From Streptococcus thalassemiae (GTDB taxonomy: Bacteria > Bacillota > Bacilli > Lactobacillales > Streptococcaceae): a DNA stretch of 64,000 nucleotides. Numbering within the stretch: the stretch's first letter is position 1; the number at the start of each line of letters is the position of its first letter. Below the pieces are notes generated by a model, which was not told where the DNA came from, made no database searches, and saw only the letters and a program-made list of their open reading frames with translations. The position numbers and the translations under genes were made by a program. Of the stretch, positions 51,746 to 61,424 are shown one piece after another. The stretch is from assembly GCF_903645285.1 (NCBI RefSeq), contig NZ_CAHJXN010000002.1, positions 62,001 to 126,000 on the forward strand. The letters are read 5' to 3'.

Positions 51746-54700
51746 TTACTCCTTATCATCTTTACGACGTCTTGAAACTAAACCTAAGCCAGTCATTGCG
51801 GCTAAAGCTCCAAGAAGGAGAGATGAAGTTGATGATTGAGTACCTGTATTCGGAAGTTCCCGTTTACCATCTACAAATGTTGATTCATTTGAATTCACTA
51901 TTTGAGTTGATTTATCTGATGTCACTGTTACATCTGAATGATCTGGGGTATCTGATTGTCCAGGAACATCTGGATGATTTGGCTTATCCGATTGTCTAGG
52001 CACTTCTGGATGAGAAGGAGTTCCATCATGACTTGGAGTAATCACTTTCTTAAAGATATGGGTTGTTACATTTCCAACTAAAATAGTCTTGACATATTCA
52101 TAGCCAGTAAATGTTCCCTTATCTTTTGTACCATCTTCTTGAGGTTTTAGAATATTACCTTCAGTATCTTTCCAAACTGTTGATTTACTTTCTTCATTAC
52201 TTGGAGTTGAAGGTGTTGGTGAATATGGTGTTGAAGAAGATTTCTTAGTATACACATGAATTGTATTTCCATCTTTATCTTTCTTAGTTTCTTTGTAAAT
52301 ATACTCTGGAATGTCTTTCTTATCCTTCGTTCCTTTGTCTGAAGGATTGATTTCTTTGCCTTCTTCATCTACATAACTTGTTACGACTTGACGGTATACA
52401 TGCCTTGTATTTCCTTTTTCGTCTTTCTTACTTTCTTTGTAAATGTACTCTGGAATGTCTTTCTTATCCTTCGTTCCTTTATCTGAAGGGTTGATTTCTT
52501 TGCCTTCTTCATCTACATAAGTTGTAACAACCTTACGGTAGACATACTCAACAGTTGCAACTCCTTCTTTTAATTCTCCTGACTCAGGATCAGATGTTTC
52601 AGATTTCTTCACGAATTCATAAACATCTCCGTCAGCAGTTGTAATTGTTGTTGGTTTGTGATCAGTTGTATCGTACTGAGTTCCAACTAAATCACCATTA
52701 ACATCCATCACTGTTGTAGGAATTTCTTTACCTTCAGATGTACCTGAAATTGATAATCCATTCTCATCTACATAGTTAACAACTACAAATCCAATATGAG
52801 CTTCTGGTAATTCTTCTGTAGCATTTTGTAATTCATATACATAAGTGACAACCGATGTTCTACCTTTTACATCTGATTTTTCTGCATCTGAATATTGCGT
52901 TACTTTTATAAATTTGTAAACTTTTCCATCAGCTGTTTTAATAGTTTCTGGTTTATTGTCTGTTGTGTCATATGGTGTTTTCACTAGCGACGCTGGAGTA
53001 TCGATTACTGATTTATCAACTTTAACACCAGTTTCAGTAGTTCCTGATAATGGACGACCAGCTTTATCAATATAAGTAACAATTACATTACCATATTTTT
53101 GTTTTGTTTCATGTTCCGGTACTTCTTCATAAACATAAGTAACATTTTGTGGTTGTTCACTTACCTTACCTTTTTCCTCAGCTGAACCTGGTTTAGTTGT
53201 TGCAGTAAGAATGTATACTTTACCATCTTTTTCGATACGTTCAGGTTTAAAGTCTGATGTTGAAGTATCGTAATCTGTTCCCACTACAGTATCTTTTGGT
53301 TGTACTGTTTGAGTTTCTTTTAATGTAACTCCAGTAGTTGTTTCATAAGATACTGTTACTCCTTGACCTTTAACTGCTCTATAAGTGTAAGTAGCTGTTT
53401 GAGGTTGTTCAGTGAAATTAGTTGGAATTTTATCTACTTTTACAAATTCATAAACCTTACCATCTTTATCTGTAATGCGATTTAGATGTTCTAAGTTTAC
53501 TTTTTCGTTTAGTGATTTCTTACCAGTATTTGTTGGATCTTTGATTTCTTTTCCAGATTCATTAACAAATTTTTGAATAATTTCACCTTTTACTTCAGTG
53601 TAAACATAAGTTACAACAGTTGGAGTTTCAGTTACTTTACCATTCTCTTTTGAAGAGCCTTCTTTCACCCCACCATTTTTCTCTACAAGTTTATAAAGTT
53701 TTCCATCTTTCGTAATCGTTAAGTCTTTAACAGTTGTAGTATTATATTCATCTCCTGTTGGAACTTGAGATTTCAAGTGGTTATCAGGTTTGATTGATTC
53801 ACCTGCTTCGTCTTCGTACTTAACAGTCACATCACCATTTTGTAAGGTATACACATAGGTGATGACCGCTGGGGTATCACTTACTTTACCAGTTTCTGGG
53901 GCGGAATCTGCTTTGGTCTCTTTCAGTTTATATACTTTGCCGTCTGCTGTTTGAATTCTTGGTTTCTTAACATCTTCTGACGTTGTATCGTAAGCTGTTC
54001 CTGTTTCGACACCTTTTTTCAATTCATTTGGTGTTGAAATTGCTGTTCCTGTTTCGTCTTCGTACTTAACAGTTACGTCTCCATTTTCTAAGGTATACAC
54101 ATAGGTGATGACCGCTGGGGTATCACTTACTTTACCAGTTTCTGGGGCGGAGTCTGCTTTGGTCTCTTTCAGTTTATATACTTTTCCATCTTCTGTTTGA
54201 ATTCTTGGTTTCTTAACAGTTTCTGGCCTTGTATCGTAAGCTGTTCCTGTTTCGACACCTTTTTTCAATTCATTTGGTGTTGAAATTGCTGTTCCTGTCT
54301 CGTCTTCGTACTTAACAGTTACGTCTCCATTTTCTAAGGTATACACATAGGTGATGACCGCTGGGGTATCACTTACTTTACCAGTTTCTGGGGCGGAATC
54401 TGCTTTGGTCTCTTTCAGTTTATATACTTTGCCGTCTGCTGTTTGAATTCTTGGTTTCTTAACATCTTCTGGCGTTGTATCGTAAGCTGTTCCTGTTTCG
54501 ACACCTTTTTTCAATTCATTTGGTGTTGAAATTGCTGTTCCTGTTTCGTCTTCGTACTTAACAGTTACGTCACCATTTTCTAATGTGTATACGTATGTGA
54601 TGACCGCTGGTGTATCACTTACTTTACCAGTTTCTGGGGCGGAATCTGCTTTGGTCTCTTTCAGTTTATATACTTTGCCGTCTGCTGTTTGAATTCTTGG

Positions 54701-57700
54701 TTTCTTAACATCTTCTGGCCTTGTATCGTAAGCTGTTCCTGTTTCGACACCTTTTTTCAATTCATTTGGTGTTGAGATTGCTGTTCCTGTTTCGTCTTCG
54801 TACTTAACGGTTACGTCACCATTTTGCAACACATACTCATAAGTAACTGTTTGTTTTTCTGTAGATACTTTACCTATTTCTGCAGCTGAACCTGTTTTTA
54901 ATCCATTATTTGCTTCAACAAGCTTATAAACTCGTCCATCTTCTTTTCTTATAGTTGCGTCTTTCGTCGCAGTATAGTCACTTCCTACTTGTCCATTTGT
55001 TACTAGTGCTACTGGATCTTTTAGGTTGGTTTCTGTGCCTGCGATGACGTATTTAACTTCGACATTTCCACCTACTTTTGGTGCATACTCATAAACGACT
55101 TCTTGTTTCGCTTCTGTTACTTTACCTGTTTCTGGAGCTGAATCTGCTTTTAGTCCATTATTTGTTTTAACTAATTCATAGACTAAGCCGTCTTTTGTAA
55201 GTGTGTTTTCTTTCGTCGCAGTGTAGTCACTTCCTACTTGTCCATTTGTTACTAGTGCTACTGGATCTTTTAGGTTGGTTTCTGTGCCTGCGATGACGTA
55301 TTTAACTTCGACATTTCCACCTACTTTTGGTGCATACTCATAAACGACTTCTTGTTTCGCTTCTGTTACTTTACCTGTTTCTGTAGCTGAACCTGCTTTT
55401 AGTCCATTATTTGTTTTAACTAATTCATAGACTAAGCCGTCTTTTGTAAGTGTGTTTTCTTTCGTCGCAGTATAGTCACTTCCTACTTGTCCATTTGTTA
55501 CTAGTGCTACTGGATCTTTTAGGTTGGTTTCTGTGCCTGCAATGACATATTTAACTTCGACGTTTCCACCTACTTTTGGTGCGTACTCATAAACGACTTC
55601 TTGTTTCGCTTCTGTTACTTTACCTGTTTCTGTAGCTGAACCTGCTTTTAGTCCATTATTTGTTTTAACTAATTCATAGACTAAGCCGTCTTTTGTGAGT
55701 GTGTTTTCTTTTGTCGCAGTGTAGTCACTTCCTACTTGTCCATTTGTTACTAGTGCTACTGGATCTTTTAGGTTGGTTTCTGTGCCTGCGATGACGTATT
55801 TAACTTCGACATTTCCACCTACTTTTGGTGCATACTCATAAACGACTTCTTGTTTCGCTTCTGTTACTTTACCTGTTTCTGGAGCTGAATCTGCTTTTAG
55901 TCCATTATTTGTTTTAACTAATTCATAGACTAAGCCGTCTTTTGTAAGTGTGTTTTCTTTCGTCGCAGTGTAGTCACTTCCTACTTGTCCATCTGTTACT
56001 AATGCTACTGGATCTTTTAGGTTGGTTTCTGTGCCTGCGATGACGTATTTAACTTCGACATTTCCACCTACTTTTGGTGCGTACTCATAAACAACTTCTT
56101 GTTTCGCTTCTGTTACTTTACCTGTTTCTGTAGCTGAACCTGCTTTTAGTCCATTATTTGTTTTAACTAATTCATAGACTAAGCCGTCTTTTGTAAGTGT
56201 GTTTTCTTTCGTCGCAGTATAGTCACTTCCTACTTGTCCATTTGTTACTAGTGCTACTGGATCTTTTAGGTTGGTTTCTGTGCCTGCAATGACATATTTA
56301 ACTTCGACGTTTCCACCTACTTTTGGTGCGTACTCATAAACGACTTCTTGTTTATCCGCTGTAACTGTACCTTGTTCTCCAGCTGATGTAGCTTTATGTC
56401 CTTTATATACATAAACTTTCCCATCAGTATCTGTTAATTCTTCACCTGCTACTGGCGCTGTTGAAGTATAGCTTGTTCCAACTTTTAATCCCTTAGCGAC
56501 ATCTGTTGATGGTTTTAATTCAGTTGTTGTACCTTCAATAACGTATTTTGCAACTACATCTCCACCAACTGGGACAAATCGCTCATAGTATACATTTTCA
56601 ACAATATCACCATTATTAAGGACTTCAGGTGTAATTCTTACTTCATCAATTGCCGCTTTAGCAATATATTGATCATTAACTTTTACTTCTGGTTTTTCCC
56701 ATTCTGAAGGTGTTGGAGAAGTTACAGACTCCCATTTAGCATTTGCAGGAATTTCCCAATTACCTTCTACCACTCGACCTGTTTCTTTTCCTGTATAAAC
56801 TTTTCTCGATGCTGTAACAACTTGTTCAACAGGTTGTGAAATCACATTAGTTTCGTTATTTTTTTCTAAATAATGAATAGTTCGTTTAACTTCTTTTGTT
56901 TCAGTTACTTCCTTAGCTTCTTCATATAAATAAGTTACTTTCTTAGTGACTTGCTTTTCATATGTTCCCGATGGTGTTGCAGAGGTTGGATCTAACTCTT
57001 TATAAATGTAAGTTCGTCCATTTTTAGTCATAACGTCATCTTTATTGGTCGTGTATGGCTCATTTGCAAATCCTTCGGTAGTTCTTCTTGCTTCAGAATC
57101 TCTTGGTGATAAATCCAATCCACTAGTTGTATAGTAGCGAGAAATAACTTTACCTCTAATATCTTCTGTTCTAAGACCTACAACATTTGATTCTAACCAA
57201 GTATTTGAAGCATTTTTCAAAAATATTTGTGATGTACTTTGGATAAAGTTTGGATTTTGTTGGTCGACTCTAACATTAAAATGATCTACAAAAGGTGTTT
57301 CTTTAGTTACTTGATAATCAGATTTGAAAACATATTTTACAGCTGTTACATCTTTCCAATTAGAAATCTGATCTGCTGTTACATATGTCGCTGTAGTTTT
57401 ATCTGCCACAGTTGAAGTCGTATAAACAACGTCCCATGAATCAGATTTATCAACAATTGGTCCTTCTAAATATGTAACTGCTTCTTTTTTAGGTACTAAT
57501 ACAACTGCCTCTTTAATTTGTTGTGGATTATCTGTTAAGTTTTGAATAGTTGGCGTTAAGGTCACTTCATTTCCATTTACTACATCTATAATTCCTCGAA
57601 CAACTGGAGTTCCAGGTTTTGAGATACCAAGTGCAGTGTAATACTCAATAACATTTGTAAATTTTACATCAACACTTGCTCTGGATATTGTATTACCACT

Positions 57701-60304
57701 TTCATGCCCATCAACATAATCCGAATTCAACGAACGATCTCGTCCTTTTAATGTTTGTGAATTACTATTCCAAACTAAATAAGACTCAATATTATAAGTA
57801 TTACTTTCTACTAATCCATTATTTTCAACTTCAAAAGTTAAAGCCACAGGTCTATATCCCTGCTCTGCCGTTATATTCTCAGAAACATCATATTTCGTTA
57901 TTCCTAAATCTTTTGTATCAAAAATATATGCTGTTTTTCCTGTGTTTTTATAGTTAGTAATTGTTCTAGTTGGTATTACAGTAGTATATTTTTCTTTTAT
58001 TTTATCATAATCATATAAAGCTCTACCTTCATTTGGAGTATACACTACATCTGTTGTTAATAATCGATTATCAGTTGTCACACGAAAGTCTTTTAACGGA
58101 ACTTTAGGATCTGCAAGTAGCATTATTTTCGTTTCAGTTATATTTGGATCCAATTTTGATAGGTTTCTTGTTTGTACACCATTTTCACTTTCATTTAATG
58201 ATTTAAAATAATCAGTTGCATGATAACTAACAATTACTGGAAGAATTTTTCCTCTAGAAATATCTTTACTATTAACTCCTCTGCCATTCAGTACATTCAT
58301 TTCGAGTGATAACTCATAAGGTGTTTTATTATGAACAGCTTCTCTAAATTTTCCTGTTTGTGGGCGAACTTCATTAGAAGCTTGAGTTAGATTTTCACTG
58401 AAACTTAAATTGATTCGATTTTTATAACTAGTAATTTTATCATCTTCACTTTTTTCTTTCCAACTAGGTACCTTTACATCTAGAAAAGCATTAAATTCTT
58501 TAATTTTTATTTTTTCCCCATCTTTATAATACTTGTCTTCAATTCCTGAATGTTCTAACACAAGATGTTGATAGTGTTTGGACGAATCAAGTTTAATGGT
58601 AGTTGCCATTTCTTCTGCATTTGAGTACTCTTTAATCAATTCAGGTTGATTTTGCTCATTTATTCCATATAATTTAAATGGTTTTACTAACGTTCCACTT
58701 GCATCAGTATAATTAAGAGTTGATTTAGTTCCATTTGCGTTTAACTTAGCATATTTAAAATCTCCTAGTCTAACAGATGTAAAATAATTATCTTTCTGAT
58801 CTTTCGGAATAAAGTAATTAACAAAATTACCCGAAAAGATTCCCCCATCACCTTTCATCTGAGAATCTTCCAATCTAACCGAAGCCCTAAAAGTATCTGT
58901 ATCTGATTGATTTGAATATAATTTCTGATTACTAGGAGTCCAAATATAGGTATATAAGCTTCCGATAGTAGAAAGTCCATTTGTGGCATAAACACGAAAT
59001 GCATTGTTACTTGGTAATTCTTGTGTAAATGTTGAGCCATCTGGTCGATGCCCTACTGCAGTATAAGTAATTGGTGGAAGATACCCTTTAGTCGGTGTAG
59101 TATCAATATATTTTTGAATTTCATCAGATGTCGTCAAAACTCCCTTTTTTAATCGTAAATAAAGAGCATAATCATTAGTATTAGTACCTTCACTAACCCC
59201 ATTCTCTGGTATAAAAGTTGCCACTCCATTTTCCAGTTTCCACCTATCACTACCTCTCATACCTGGAGCTATTTCAAAAATGTCAGGAATTCCACTAATT
59301 GTGTAATCATATTTTAACAATCGACCATTCCCGTTATGAGAAGCAGTTCCATTCTCATCTGCTTCTCTATTCCGGATATAGGCTGTATTTGCTGCAATAA
59401 AAGGTAATTTGTACGTTGCATTTTCAATAGGCTTAAAAGTACCATCAATAACATTTCCTAATTTCCATTCAGCTTCATGTTTTGTATAGTCAATATATAG
59501 ATTGCCAAAAATAAAGCTTCCTACTTCTTTTGTACGAGTATCTGATTCTCGATAAAGAATTTCAGATAAATAATCAAACGTTGCAGTTATAGTCTTAGAA
59601 ACCGTATAATTATCACCAGTTCCTAATTCTACAGTAATAGGAAGTCGATCACCATTACTTGGAGCGTTTTTTATAGAGGTACCAACTCGCAATATCATCT
59701 CACTCTCTGCAACTGTTCCACCTGTCATAGGATTAAGACTCAATTCATAAATATAAGCAGCCTCTGTTGATTTATCTTCTACTTTCTTAACAAATGTAGA
59801 GTGTTTAAATTCTGGTTGCGATTTTGAATGTAAAAATTCTTTCGGAACTGTAATACGAACTTTTCCATCAACAACCGTTTCATCAGAGGATGCAGAGTAA
59901 GTTATAGATACTTTTTGATAACGACTCCCATTCCCTTCATTTGCAACAGGAATTTGTTTTTCTGTTGGTCCATTATGACTATCAAAATGAACATCTCCGG
60001 ATATAGCTTGGCTTGTAACTCCCTCTCTAAAGCTTACTCCTTCTTCCATCTTTTTGCCATTACGACTATCTTGATTTTTATTTTCTTTAGGTGTTTCTTC
60101 AGCTTTAATTGATTTTAAGATAGAAGTTAATGAGCTGATTTCTTTAGCTTTTTTATCAGCTCCTGACTGTGTTGCATCCAAAGTGCCTAAATATTGCTTA
60201 GCTTCTGCAACGAGTTTTTCGGCATTTTGGATTTGAGAAGCTTGTTTTTTATTTCCTCGGATACGTTCAATTTGAGCTTCCAAATCAGCTAATTTCGTTT
60301 GCAA
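51746..60304 (-). CDS. Giant MucBP-repeat LPXTG surface protein, 5'-truncated (probable pseudogene)
   Basis: From the first usable start codon (TTG at 60304) the frame gives 2852 residues. Order: a short coiled coil (ADLEAQIERIRGNKKQ), about 1200 residues of beta-rich adhesin-like sequence, six MucBP-type repeats of 83 residues, four of 82 residues, several diverged MucBP copies, Pro/Ser-rich wall-spanning sequence, then the sortase motif LPNTG (about residue 2817), a hydrophobic span and RRRKDDKE. MucBP proteins bind mucins or glycans. The frame stays open upstream to a TAG at 60575-60577. Those 90 extra codons encode Glu/Ala/Thr-rich sequence typical of the region after a YSIRK signal peptide, but no start, signal peptide or ribosome-binding site is visible. 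Without them the product would not be exported. Confidence 0.85.
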   Translation of the reverse strand: MQTKLADLEAQIERIRGNKKQASQIQNAEKLVAEAKQYLGTLDATQSGADKKAKEISSLTSILKSIKAEETPKENKNQDSRNGKKMEEGVSFREGVTSQAISGDVHFDSHNGPTEKQIPVANEGNGSRYQKVSITYSASSDETVVDGKVRITVPKEFLHSKSQPEFKHSTFVKKVEDKSTEAAYIYELSLNPMTGGTVAESEMILRVGTSIKNAPSNGDRLPITVELGTGDNYTVSKTITATFDYLSEILYRESDTRTKEVGSFIFGNLYIDYTKHEAEWKLGNVIDGTFKPIENATYKLPFIAANTAYIRNREADENGTASHNGNGRLLKYDYTISGIPDIFEIAPGMRGSDRWKLENGVATFIPENGVSEGTNTNDYALYLRLKKGVLTTSDEIQKYIDTTPTKGYLPPITYTAVGHRPDGSTFTQELPSNNAFRVYATNGLSTIGSLYTYIWTPSNQKLYSNQSDTDTFRASVRLEDSQMKGDGGIFSGNFVNYFIPKDQKDNYFTSVRLGDFKYAKLNANGTKSTLNYTDASGTLVKPFKLYGINEQNQPELIKEYSNAEEMATTIKLDSSKHYQHLVLEHSGIEDKYYKDGEKIKIKEFNAFLDVKVPSWKEKSEDDKITSYKNRINLSFSENLTQASNEVRPQTGKFREAVHNKTPYELSLEMNVLNGRGVNSKDISRGKILPVIVSYHATDYFKSLNESENGVQTRNLSKLDPNITETKIMLLADPKVPLKDFRVTTDNRLLTTDVVYTPNEGRALYDYDKIKEKYTTVIPTRTITNYKNTGKTAYIFDTKDLGITKYDVSENITAEQGYRPVALTFEVENNGLVESNTYNIESYLVWNSNSQTLKGRDRSLNSDYVDGHESGNTISRASVDVKFTNVIEYYTALGISKPGTPVVRGIIDVVNGNEVTLTPTIQNLTDNPQQIKEAVVLVPKKEAVTYLEGPIVDKSDSWDVVYTTSTVADKTTATYVTADQISNWKDVTAVKYVFKSDYQVTKETPFVDHFNVRVDQQNPNFIQSTSQIFLKNASNTWLESNVVGLRTEDIRGKVISRYYTTSGLDLSPRDSEARRTTEGFANEPYTTNKDDVMTKNGRTYIYKELDPTSATPSGTYEKQVTKKVTYLYEEAKEVTETKEVKRTIHYLEKNNETNVISQPVEQVVTASRKVYTGKETGRVVEGNWEIPANAKWESVTSPTPSEWEKPEVKVNDQYIAKAAIDEVRITPEVLNNGDIVENVYYERFVPVGGDVVAKYVIEGTTTELKPSTDVAKGLKVGTSYTSTAPVAGEELTDTDGKVYVYKGHKATSAGEQGTVTADKQEVVYEYAPKVGGNVEVKYVIAGTETNLKDPVALVTNGQVGSDYTATKENTLTKDGLVYELVKTNNGLKAGSATETGKVTEAKQEVVYEYAPKVGGNVEVKYVIAGTETNLKDPVALVTDGQVGSDYTATKENTLTKDGLVYELVKTNNGLKADSAPETGKVTEAKQEVVYEYAPKVGGNVEVKYVIAGTETNLKDPVALVTNGQVGSDYTATKENTLTKDGLVYELVKTNNGLKAGSATETGKVTEAKQEVVYEYAPKVGGNVEVKYVIAGTETNLKDPVALVTNGQVGSDYTATKENTLTKDGLVYELVKTNNGLKAGSATETGKVTEAKQEVVYEYAPKVGGNVEVKYVIAGTETNLKDPVALVTNGQVGSDYTATKENTLTKDGLVYELVKTNNGLKADSAPETGKVTEAKQEVVYEYAPKVGGNVEVKYVIAGTETNLKDPVALVTNGQVGSDYTATKDATIRKEDGRVYKLVEANNGLKTGSAAEIGKVSTEKQTVTYEYVLQNGDVTVKYEDETGTAISTPNELKKGVETGTAYDTRPEDVKKPRIQTADGKVYKLKETKADSAPETGKVSDTPAVITYVYTLENGDVTVKYEDETGTAISTPNELKKGVETGTAYDTTPEDVKKPRIQTADGKVYKLKETKADSAPETGKVSDTPAVITYVYTLENGDVTVKYEDETGTAISTPNELKKGVETGTAYDTRPETVKKPRIQTEDGKVYKLKETKADSAPETGKVSDTPAVITYVYTLENGDVTVKYEDETGTAISTPNELKKGVETGTAYDTTSEDVKKPRIQTADGKVYKLKETKADSAPETGKVSDTPAVITYVYTLQNGDVTVKYEDEAGESIKPDNHLKSQVPTGDEYNTTTVKDLTITKDGKLYKLVEKNGGVKEGSSKENGKVTETPTVVTYVYTEVKGEIIQKFVNESGKEIKDPTNTGKKSLNEKVNLEHLNRITDKDGKVYEFVKVDKIPTNFTEQPQTATYTYRAVKGQGVTVSYETTTGVTLKETQTVQPKDTVVGTDYDTSTSDFKPERIEKDGKVYILTATTKPGSAEEKGKVSEQPQNVTYVYEEVPEHETKQKYGNVIVTYIDKAGRPLSGTTETGVKVDKSVIDTPASLVKTPYDTTDNKPETIKTADGKVYKFIKVTQYSDAEKSDVKGRTSVVTYVYELQNATEELPEAHIGFVVVNYVDENGLSISGTSEGKEIPTTVMDVNGDLVGTQYDTTDHKPTTITTADGDVYEFVKKSETSDPESGELKEGVATVEYVYRKVVTTYVDEEGKEINPSDKGTKDKKDIPEYIYKESKKDEKGNTRHVYRQVVTSYVDEEGKEINPSDKGTKDKKDIPEYIYKETKKDKDGNTIHVYTKKSSSTPYSPTPSTPSNEESKSTVWKDTEGNILKPQEDGTKDKGTFTGYEYVKTILVGNVTTHIFKKVITPSHDGTPSHPEVPRQSDKPNHPDVPGQSDTPDHSDVTVTSDKSTQIVNSNESTFVDGKRELPNTGTQSSTSSLLLGALAAMTGLGLVSRRRKDDKE
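53833..54830 (-). repeat. Tandem array of four 246-bp MucBP units
   Basis: Anchor sequence CGTACTTAAC occurs at 53815 (diverged unit), 54061, 54307, 54553 and 54799, exactly 246 bases apart. Each canonical unit encodes 82 residues with YEDETGTAISTPNELKKGVE and ADSAPETGKVSDTPAVITYV. Units differ at few positions (for example TTPEDV, TRPETV, TTSEDV). Confidence 0.93.
54830..56345 (-). repeat. Tandem array of six 249-bp MucBP units
   Basis: Anchor ATTTAACTTCGAC occurs at 55051, 55300, 55549, 55798, 56047 and 56296, exactly 249 bases apart. Each unit encodes 83 residues with GGNVEVKYVIAGTETNLKDP and TKDGLVYELVKTNNGLKA. The unit nearest the C-terminus is diverged in its second half. Confidence 0.93.
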
Positions 60305-60574
60305 AAGAGATAAATTGATAGATGGTTTTGTCTCAGTTGCTTCTGCAGTGTTAGTATGTTCTGAAACTGCTGAAGCTTGTTCAGCTTCTTTTTCATTTTC
60401 TTTTACAGGTGTCGCTGGCTCAGCTGACTTTTCTTCATTTATTTTTGGTTGCTCAGCTAACTCTGATGTTGTTTCACTATCTGATTTTGACTCAGAGACA
60501 GTTCCTGCTTGCGTATTTTCTTGAACTTGGTTTAGTCCCGTATCAGCATCCTTTGTTACTACCGCTTCGTGTTT
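60305..60574 (-). pseudogene. In-frame 5' extension of the surface-protein gene without a start
   Basis: 90 open codons read KHEAVVTKDADTGLNQVQEN, then Glu/Ala/Ser/Thr-rich sequence such as SELAEQPKINEEKSAEPATP, joining the long frame without a break. There is no ATG, GTG or TTG before 60304 in frame, and a TAG precedes it. The rest of the gap to efp (60578-60863) shows no signal peptide in any frame that I can recognise. Confidence 0.6.
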
Positions 60575-60863
60575 CTAGCGAGGCAGCTCATTATCGTATT
60601 ATCTGCCCGATAGATCTCTTAAATTCAATCGATTTTAATCATTTCAAACGATGATCTTTGTTCTCGATAATTAAGAATTTGCCACTTATATATATCGACT
60701 GTACATACTTCGTATCATATTTCAAAGAAATTTTTAAGATATTTACTGATAAATTTCATTAAAAAATATAGGTAAATATTTCCATTATCCCACCTCCAAC
60801 TTTCTTTTTCATTCCTTTTATGGTAGAATGAAGAGTAATAATATTTATTAAAGAGGTAAAAAC

Positions 60864-61424
60864 ATGATTGAAGCAAGCAAATTGAAAGCTGGTATGACAT
60901 TTGAAACTGCAGACGGAAAATTGATCCGCGTTTTGGAAGCTAGCCACCACAAACCAGGTAAAGGGAACACAATCATGCGTATGAAATTGCGTGATGTCCG
61001 TACTGGTTCTACATTTGATACAAGCTACCGTCCAGAAGAAAAATTCGAACAAGCTATTATCGAAACTGTTCCAGCTCAATACTTGTACAAAATGGATGAA
61101 ACTGCCTACTTCATGAACACTGAAACTTACGACCAATACGAAATACCAGTCGTAAATGTTGAAAATGAGTTGCTTTACATCCTTGAAAACTCTGATGTGA
61201 AAATCCAATTCTACGGAACTGAAGTAATCGGTGTCACTGTACCAACTACTGTTGAATTGACAGTCGCTGAAACACAACCATCTATCAAGGGTGCTACTGT
61301 TACAGGTTCTGGTAAACCAGCAACTATGGAAACTGGACTTGTTGTCAACGTTCCTGACTTCATCGAAGCTGGACAAAAATTGATCATCAACACTGCAGAA
61401 GGAACTTACGTTTCTCGTGCCTAA
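60864..61424 (+). CDS. efp: Elongation factor P
   Basis: Relieves ribosome stalling at polyproline. 186 residues in three OB-like domains. The tip loop reads [10 protein letters not shown], with the Lys that is modified in many bacteria. The C-terminus has the conserved GTYVSRA. It has its own promoter (TGGTAGAAT at about 60820) and AGAGG. It is followed at 21 bases by the Asp23-type gene. Confidence 0.98.

What the first reader, a model, noticed from the sequence alone, without database searches (positions are those of the whole stretch)
51746..60863. Giant adhesin gene has lost its 5' end but keeps a perfectly open 8.8-kb frame
The frame is open from a TAG at 60575 to the LPXTG tail, including near-identical repeats, yet there is no start codon for the first 90 codons, no signal peptide and no ribosome-binding site. 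A pseudogene of this length would be expected to collect stops soon. Either the truncation is very recent, or the coding end is a reservoir that recombines with an expressed 5' end elsewhere (phase or antigenic variation), or an assembly join is wrong.
Basis: partly seen in the sequence, partly recalled or inferred. Interest (0 to 1): 0.72.

Follow-up and report, generated by a model that had tools for sequence, protein, structure and literature searches.

The report
Garbled start of a giant adhesin
A giant surface-protein gene of a streptococcus looks as if it lost its beginning, but the beginning is still there in a garbled, deletion-riddled form while close relatives carry it intact at the same spot, so this is most likely a local sequencing or assembly error rather than a real headless gene.

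Summary
In detail: the minus-strand frame is open from TAG (60575-60577) to the LPXTG tail at 51746, 2942 codons, with no possible start before a TTG at codon 91. The 5' end is not missing, however. Five fetched loci (L058-L062) carry the gene at the same junction with an open signal peptide; the nearest is 99% identical in the N-terminal region. Where they have start codon plus signal peptide, the window has a shorter copy with the words in the same order. The tightest patch is 111 nt against 200 nt: 22 deletions, 9 mismatches, no insertion. Flanks are 97-98% identical, and 1460 codons of the body align without a gap. A bad consensus patch in the assembly is the best explanation (0.72). A real, very recent lesion is the main rival (0.22): one relative has a stop at codon 7, and three public relatives lack the head. 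No second copy was found in the genome, so the reservoir idea is unsupported. In passing: all eight G>=9 tracts of this genome sit at surface-protein genes or a glycosyltransferase, a likely slipped-strand switch set.

The parts
51746..60574 (-). Open frame of the giant LPXTG adhesin (2942 codons, no stop inside): 14 MucBP, 3 SSSPR-51, LPXTG anchor
51752..51868 (-). LPXTG cell-wall anchor (Gram_pos_anchor, residues 2903-2941 of P0001)
   Evidence: coordinates computed from residue numbers
60302..60304 (-). First possible start codon (TTG), codon 91 of the frame
60575..60577 (-). In-frame TAG that opens the frame; lies inside the garbled segment
60588..60698 (-). Tightest garbled patch: 111 nt against 200 nt in the nearest relative; 102 matches, 9 mismatches, 22 deletions, 0 insertions
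60569..60711 (-). Whole garbled segment (143 nt against 235 nt), covering 5'UTR TA tract, start codon and signal-peptide region of the relatives
60712..60863 (-). Upstream intergenic DNA, nearly identical to L058, which carries the intact gene
60864..61424 (+).

Best explanation
The gene's start and signal peptide are present in the window only as a shortened, deletion-riddled copy, which is most likely a bad consensus patch in this assembly, so the living strain would carry an ordinary, complete YSIRK/LPXTG MucBP adhesin. Shown: the open body, the sharp-edged deletion-only patch, intact orthologues at the same locus, no second match in the genome searches. Inferred: that the patch comes from noisy, deletion-prone sequence (for instance one poor long-read stretch or a badly filled gap) that was never corrected. 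Expected function by family, untested: secretion through the YSIRK signal, sortase anchoring by LPXTG, and adhesion through the MucBP repeat stalk and N-terminal domain.
For: (a) The 143-nt segment aligns in order to the 235 nt of L058 with 130 matches, 13 mismatches, 92 deleted and 0 inserted bases: score 99 against a mean of 26.5 and a maximum of 53 in 1000 dinucleotide shuffles. The tightest patch has 22 deletion blocks of 1-15 nt and no insertion. (b) Intact orthologues in the same interval differ from L058 by 10-16 substitutions and 3-4 indel events; the window reverses that ratio. (c) The segment fits L058, the closest strain, better (99) than L059-L062 (75-88), so it looks like this lineage's own allele and not a foreign one. 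(d) The two flanking aligned stretches are 97.0% and 98.3% identical up to the patch; 1460 codons of the body align without a gap, dN/dS 0.235. (e) A search of the 116-nt patch in 284 genus genomes gave only G000, a 49-nt stretch of the intact G271 locus and a 31-nt match in G160. (f) 41 of the 44 nearest listed proteins (P0002-P0045) and 114 of all 120 listed have the YSIRK domain. (g) The assembly has a run of 9 N inside another LPXTG repeat gene.
Against: No reads were available, so an artefact is inferred. No second deletion-only patch was seen in 124,101 aligned bases of this genome against G271, so the assembly is not generally poor there. 44% missing bases is more than ordinary long-read noise (general knowledge). 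Homopolymer shortening, a usual long-read mark, is not above chance: 6 of 7 runs of four or more are shortened against 5.5 expected. Under a more gap-lenient scoring 8 inserted bases appear. Damaged 5' ends are seen elsewhere: the G031 orthologue has a stop at codon 7, and P0036, P0044 and P0045 lack the signal peptide. The 9-N run could also be operator masking (contig C5 reads as 894 N).
Confidence: 0.72

Rival explanations
1. The lesion is real and very recent: this strain truly carries a silenced adhesin gene whose head was destroyed by a complex local mutation, and the body has not had time to collect stops.
For: Body open and with dN/dS 0.235 against L058, as expected if the lesion is young. 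Other damaged heads are on record: stop at codon 7 in G031 with a 3713-codon frame; headless public proteins P0036, P0044, P0045 with intact tails.
Against: 22 separate deletions with no insertion in 200 nt, beside 1460 gap-free codons, cannot be independent mutations at one rate, and I know of no single natural event that makes such a pattern (general knowledge). The patch sequence was not found elsewhere in 284 genomes beyond short matches.
Confidence: 0.22
2. The coding body is a silent cassette that recombines with an expressed 5' end elsewhere (antigenic or phase variation); the unneeded head decays while the body is kept open.
For: Body conserved, head garbled; 17 YSIRK signals in the genome could serve as donors.
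Against: One match only in the own genome for the N-terminal region and for the 5' DNA. Intact relatives have a complete gene at this locus. Neutral decay should bring more substitutions than deletions; here 9 against 22.
Confidence: 0.04
3. The gene is expressed as it stands, from the TTG at 60304 or another start, as a protein without a signal peptide.
For: The frame downstream of 60304 is complete to the LPXTG tail.
Against: No ribosome-binding site seen before it, no YSIRK signal, and a cell-wall anchor that needs export.
Confidence: 0.02

Closest known systems
YSIRK/LPXTG MucBP-SSSPR-51 adhesins of Streptococcus mitis and kin at the same junction (loci L058-L062) and the nearest proteins P0002-P0006
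   Same: Same locus (L058-L062), same domains and LPXTG tail (P0002); 95-98% identity in residues 1-400 for P0002-P0006
   Different: They have a complete signal peptide; the window's is garbled. The frame is longer here (2942 codons against 2289-2748 aa), with 14 MucBP stretches against 11 in P0002
Gene-breaking errors in long-read or incompletely polished assemblies (PMC12007338, abstract seen; PMC8812927 and PMC9650304, passages seen)
   Same: Assembly errors break genes that are intact in references (PMC12007338); homopolymer-length errors, in that paper's simulated assemblies mostly homopolymer deletions, persist where short reads map badly (PMC8812927)
   Different: The passages I saw speak of scattered errors; this is one dense patch in otherwise clean sequence
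Homopolymer-tract control of a streptococcal LPXTG protein: Spy1336/R28 of S. pyogenes (PMC7098570, passages seen)
   Same: Tract of variable length upstream of a surface-protein gene, tied to transcript level; parallels the TA and poly-G tracts noticed here
   Different: Poly-T there; TA units and poly-G here, and no expression data

Membership tests
YSIRK/LPXTG MucBP adhesin | LPXTG cell-wall anchor at the C-terminus | tested here: met
   PF00746, E 3.8e-9, residues 2903-2941
YSIRK/LPXTG MucBP adhesin | MucBP repeats | tested here: met
   14 stretches, E 6.3e-108
YSIRK/LPXTG MucBP adhesin | YSIRK-type signal peptide at the N-terminus | tested here: not met
   No PF04650 in P0001; met in the relative P0002. 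The sequence as deposited therefore lacks a defining part; the relative has it
Local assembly/consensus artefact | Degraded copy of the expected sequence, order kept, one error type dominant | tested here: met
   22 deletions, 0 insertions, 9 mismatches in the tightest patch; 0 of 1000 shuffles reach the score of the longer segment
Local assembly/consensus artefact | Sharp edges with near-identical flanks | tested here: met
   97.0% and 98.3% on the two sides
Local assembly/consensus artefact | Other such patches in the same assembly | tested here: not met
   None seen in 124,101 aligned bases; expected only if the assembly were generally poor
Local assembly/consensus artefact | Raw reads disagree with the consensus | not testable with these tools
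   no reads held
Silent-cassette antigenic variation | An expressed partner with the matching 5' end in the same genome | tested here: not met
   single own-genome matches (25 of 25 candidates scored, 9 of 18 scored, 4 of 4 scored)
Simple-sequence-repeat phase variation (for the orthologues and other adhesins) | Repeat tract at the promoter, 5'UTR or reading frame | tested here: met
   TA tracts of 4-12 units before the start in 8 loci with this signal peptide; 8 of 8 own G>=9 tracts at surface-protein genes or a glycosyltransferase; but 10 of 17 own YSIRK genes have no tract within 160 nt
Simple-sequence-repeat phase variation (for the orthologues and other adhesins) | Tract length varies between strains | tested here: inconclusive
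   TA units 8, 9, 8, 9, 8, 4, 12, 7 in eight loci, not all of them orthologous; of four poly-G tracts shared by G000 and G271 one differs, 9 against 10
Simple-sequence-repeat phase variation (for the orthologues and other adhesins) | Expression switches with tract length | not testable with these tools
   needs expression data

The most novel reading that the evidence does not exclude
The garbled head is real: giant adhesins of mitis-group streptococci are repeatedly switched off by lesions at the 5' end (here, at codon 7 in G031, and in the headless P0036, P0044 and P0045), while recombination and selection keep the 5-9 kb bodies open. These lesions would come on top of a genome-wide set of slipped-strand switches (poly-G and TA tracts) in front of the surface proteins.
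Probability: 0.12. Interest if true: 0.7.

Novelty: not a real feature. Interest (0 to 1): 0.22.

Why it matters
If the patch is an artefact, the locus is an ordinary adhesin and should not be quoted as a headless gene or a recombination reservoir; it also shows how one bad 110-nt stretch can fake an 8.8-kb pseudogene. If it is real, it would show that giant adhesins can be silenced at the head while the body stays usable. The poly-G tracts found on the way may matter more: they would make surface-protein switching in a common commensal group directly testable.

Tried and rejected
Mobile element or phage scar: the 241-nt region around the patch gave only weak, short matches in 12 phage records (best E 0.005; 11 of 12 Campylobacter) and 15 plasmid records (best E 0.02; 12 of 15 Listeria). 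Donor allele from another strain: the patch alone is not in 284 genus genomes beyond short matches. Wrong join: rejected, because order and flanks agree with relatives. Second copy in the genome: none found. Homopolymer signature of long reads: not above chance. Genome-wide poor assembly: not seen in the part sampled. That scan used matches of 400 nt or more, covered 49,675 of 64,000 window bases, and three of the seven further own stretches (L075-L077) had no counterpart among the G271 stretches fetched. It listed 17 intervals between neighbouring matches; 7 were aligned (the other ten have 15 nt or less on one side), and only 60588-60698 was deletion-only. Four dense-gap spots looked at were substitution-rich divergence, repeat misregister or a wrong pairing. 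Paper searches: in the titles and abstract starts listed (12 of 48 papers for, 12 of 58, all for the others) I saw no report of poly-G or TA tracts in front of mitis-group adhesins; in PMC6722419, a comparative genomics paper on the group, the words searched gave 0 for 'homopolymer' and 1 for 'phase variation', which concerns restriction-modification (passages). That is a limited search, not proof of absence.
Full report
Observation. The minus-strand frame is open from the TAG at 60577-60575 to the stop at 51746: 2942 codons ending in an LPNTG anchor. The first ATG/GTG/TTG is the TTG at 60304, codon 91. Pfam finds MucBP (14 stretches), SSSPR-51 (3) and the LPXTG anchor, but no YSIRK signal.

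Where it lies. The window is contig C2:62001-126000 of a 2,026,783-base, five-contig genome of 99.98% completeness. The six relatives found in genome contigs are titled Streptococcus mitis (five) or Streptococcus sp. 68 (one), so the strain is a mitis-group streptococcus by inference; I did not type it. The genome has 17 YSIRK matches and 15 LPXTG anchors. The adhesin is not common: its residues 110-491 match in 8 of 284 genus genomes at E <= 1e-10.

Relatives are intact at the same place. The nearest of the six loci, L058, is 99% identical over residues 3-391. L058 to L062 align with the window across the whole 1201-nt stretch from the divergent neighbour into the adhesin; the sixth, L063, did not. 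None of the five has a stop in its first 50 codons. P0002, a protein 98% identical over residues 1-400, starts with a complete YSIRK signal peptide and ends with an LPXTG anchor. Of the 44 nearest proteins listed (P0002-P0045) 41 carry PF04650, and of all 120 listed (413 found) 114 do; those without are P0036, P0044, P0045, P0060, P0071 and P0084.

The head is garbled, not gone. Against L058 the flanking matches are 97.0% and 98.3% identical. Between them, 143 nt of the window (60569-60711) stand where L058 has 235 nt. A global alignment gives 130 matches, 13 mismatches, 92 deleted and 0 inserted bases; its score of 99 compares with a mean of 26.5 and a maximum of 53 over 1000 dinucleotide shuffles. 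With a more gap-lenient scoring the figures are 134, 1, 100 and 8, and again 0 of 1000 shuffles reach the score. The tightest patch, 60588-60698, has 102 matches, 9 mismatches, 22 deletion blocks of 1-15 nt (89 nt in all) and no insertion, z 8.1 over 300 simple shuffles. So the words of the start and signal-peptide region are there, in order, with pieces missing between them. The best-fitting source is the closest strain's allele (L058 99; L059 88; L062 87; L060 77; L061 75).

Why this is not ordinary decay. Intact orthologues in the same interval differ from L058 by 10-16 substitutions and only 3-4 indel events. The window has the reverse. In the body, 1460 codons align with L058 without one gap; dN 0.006, dS 0.0257, ratio 0.235; L058 ends inside the repeats, so the rest was not compared this way. 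Mutations falling at one rate could not put 22 deletions into 200 nt and no gap into the next 4380. Recombination with a foreign allele would bring substitutions and a donor; the patch alone was found in no other genome of 284 except a 49-nt stretch of the intact G271 locus and a 31-nt match in G160. The phage and plasmid matches were weak and short.

Why I favour an artefact, and how far. A sharp-edged, deletion-only patch in clean surroundings is what an uncorrected, noisy consensus stretch would look like; papers on assembly errors describe deletions and gene-breaking errors in such assemblies (PMC8812927 and PMC9650304, passages; PMC12007338, abstract). The assembly has at least one 9-N run inside another LPXTG repeat gene, although operator masking cannot be ruled out for it. 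Against this: no similar patch in 124,101 aligned bases, homopolymer shortening not above chance, and no reads to look at. I put it at 0.72.

Main rival: a real lesion. Other sequences do show damaged heads. The G031 orthologue has a stop at codon 7 in a locus whose frame is otherwise 3713 codons long. The length filter of the protein search favours proteins damaged near the ends, so these do not prove a preference for the 5' end. They keep the real-lesion reading alive at 0.22.

Reservoir idea. The own genome gave a single match to the N-terminal region (9 of 18 candidates scored, 4 of 4) and to the 5' DNA (25 of 25). Relatives have a complete gene in the same place. Nothing supports a 5' end elsewhere.

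A switch of another kind, noticed on the way. In eight loci with this signal peptide the start is preceded by a TA tract of 8, 9, 8, 9, 8, 4, 12 and 7 units ending 12-14 nt before the ATG. In the own genome all eight distinct G>=9 tracts (10 overlapping matches) lie at surface-protein genes or at a glycosyltransferase: five within 123 nt upstream of a YSIRK gene's start, one in the spacer of a promoter-like pair before a gene with a signal-like start (by eye; no Pfam hit in its first 482 residues), one inside the signal region of a serine-rich-type LPXTG gene, and one splitting a family-8 glycosyltransferase. In six relatives that I picked, 12 distinct tracts: nine within 125 nt upstream of a start with a signal-like N-terminus by eye (five of them YSIRK-like), one inside a family-2 glycosyltransferase, two unassigned. 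Of four tracts shared by G000 and G271 one differs in length, 9 against 10. In 204,000 own bases only three tracts of G/C>=7 or of five or more TA or AT units exist, one of them already counted. Limits: 10 of the 17 own YSIRK genes have no such tract within 160 nt, and of the four own loci with eight or more TA units only two lie before a YSIRK gene. This looks like slipped-strand phase variation, as discussed for a poly-T tract before R28 in S. pyogenes (PMC7098570, passages). It is inferred, not tested.

Noticed in passing
G000 whole genome; L120-L129 and L096:1505: All 8 distinct G>=9 tracts of the genome sit at surface-protein genes (5 upstream of YSIRK genes, 1 in a promoter-like spacer before a gene with a signal-like start, 1 inside an LPXTG gene's signal region) or split a glycosyltransferase: a likely set of slipped-strand switches.
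   Followed up: partly
L154-L177 (six relatives): 12 distinct G>=9 tracts: 9 just upstream of genes with signal-like starts, 1 in a family-2 glycosyltransferase, 2 unassigned; four G271 tracts correspond to G000 tracts, one of them of different length.
   Followed up: partly
L058-L062, L012, L013, L021: TA tract of 4-12 units between promoter and start in loci with this signal-peptide type.
   Followed up: partly
L012 (G031:C4:1958647-1962228): Orthologue of the window adhesin with an in-frame stop at codon 7 of the signal peptide and a long open frame after it.
   Followed up: no
P0036, P0044, P0045: Public relatives (source ENA) without a signal peptide, starting with short unrelated pieces joined to the adhesin.
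   Followed up: no
L096:1265-17822 (G000:C3): Serine-rich-type LPXTG gene of 5446 open codons whose signal region is out of frame with the body at a G10 tract.
   Followed up: partly
L094:2887-2895: Nine N inside a repeat LPXTG gene, splitting it into two overlapping frames: an assembly gap or a masked stretch.
   Followed up: no
window 53800-56140: Tandem MucBP units seem to vary in number between strains: 14 stretches in the window protein, 11 in P0002.
   Followed up: no
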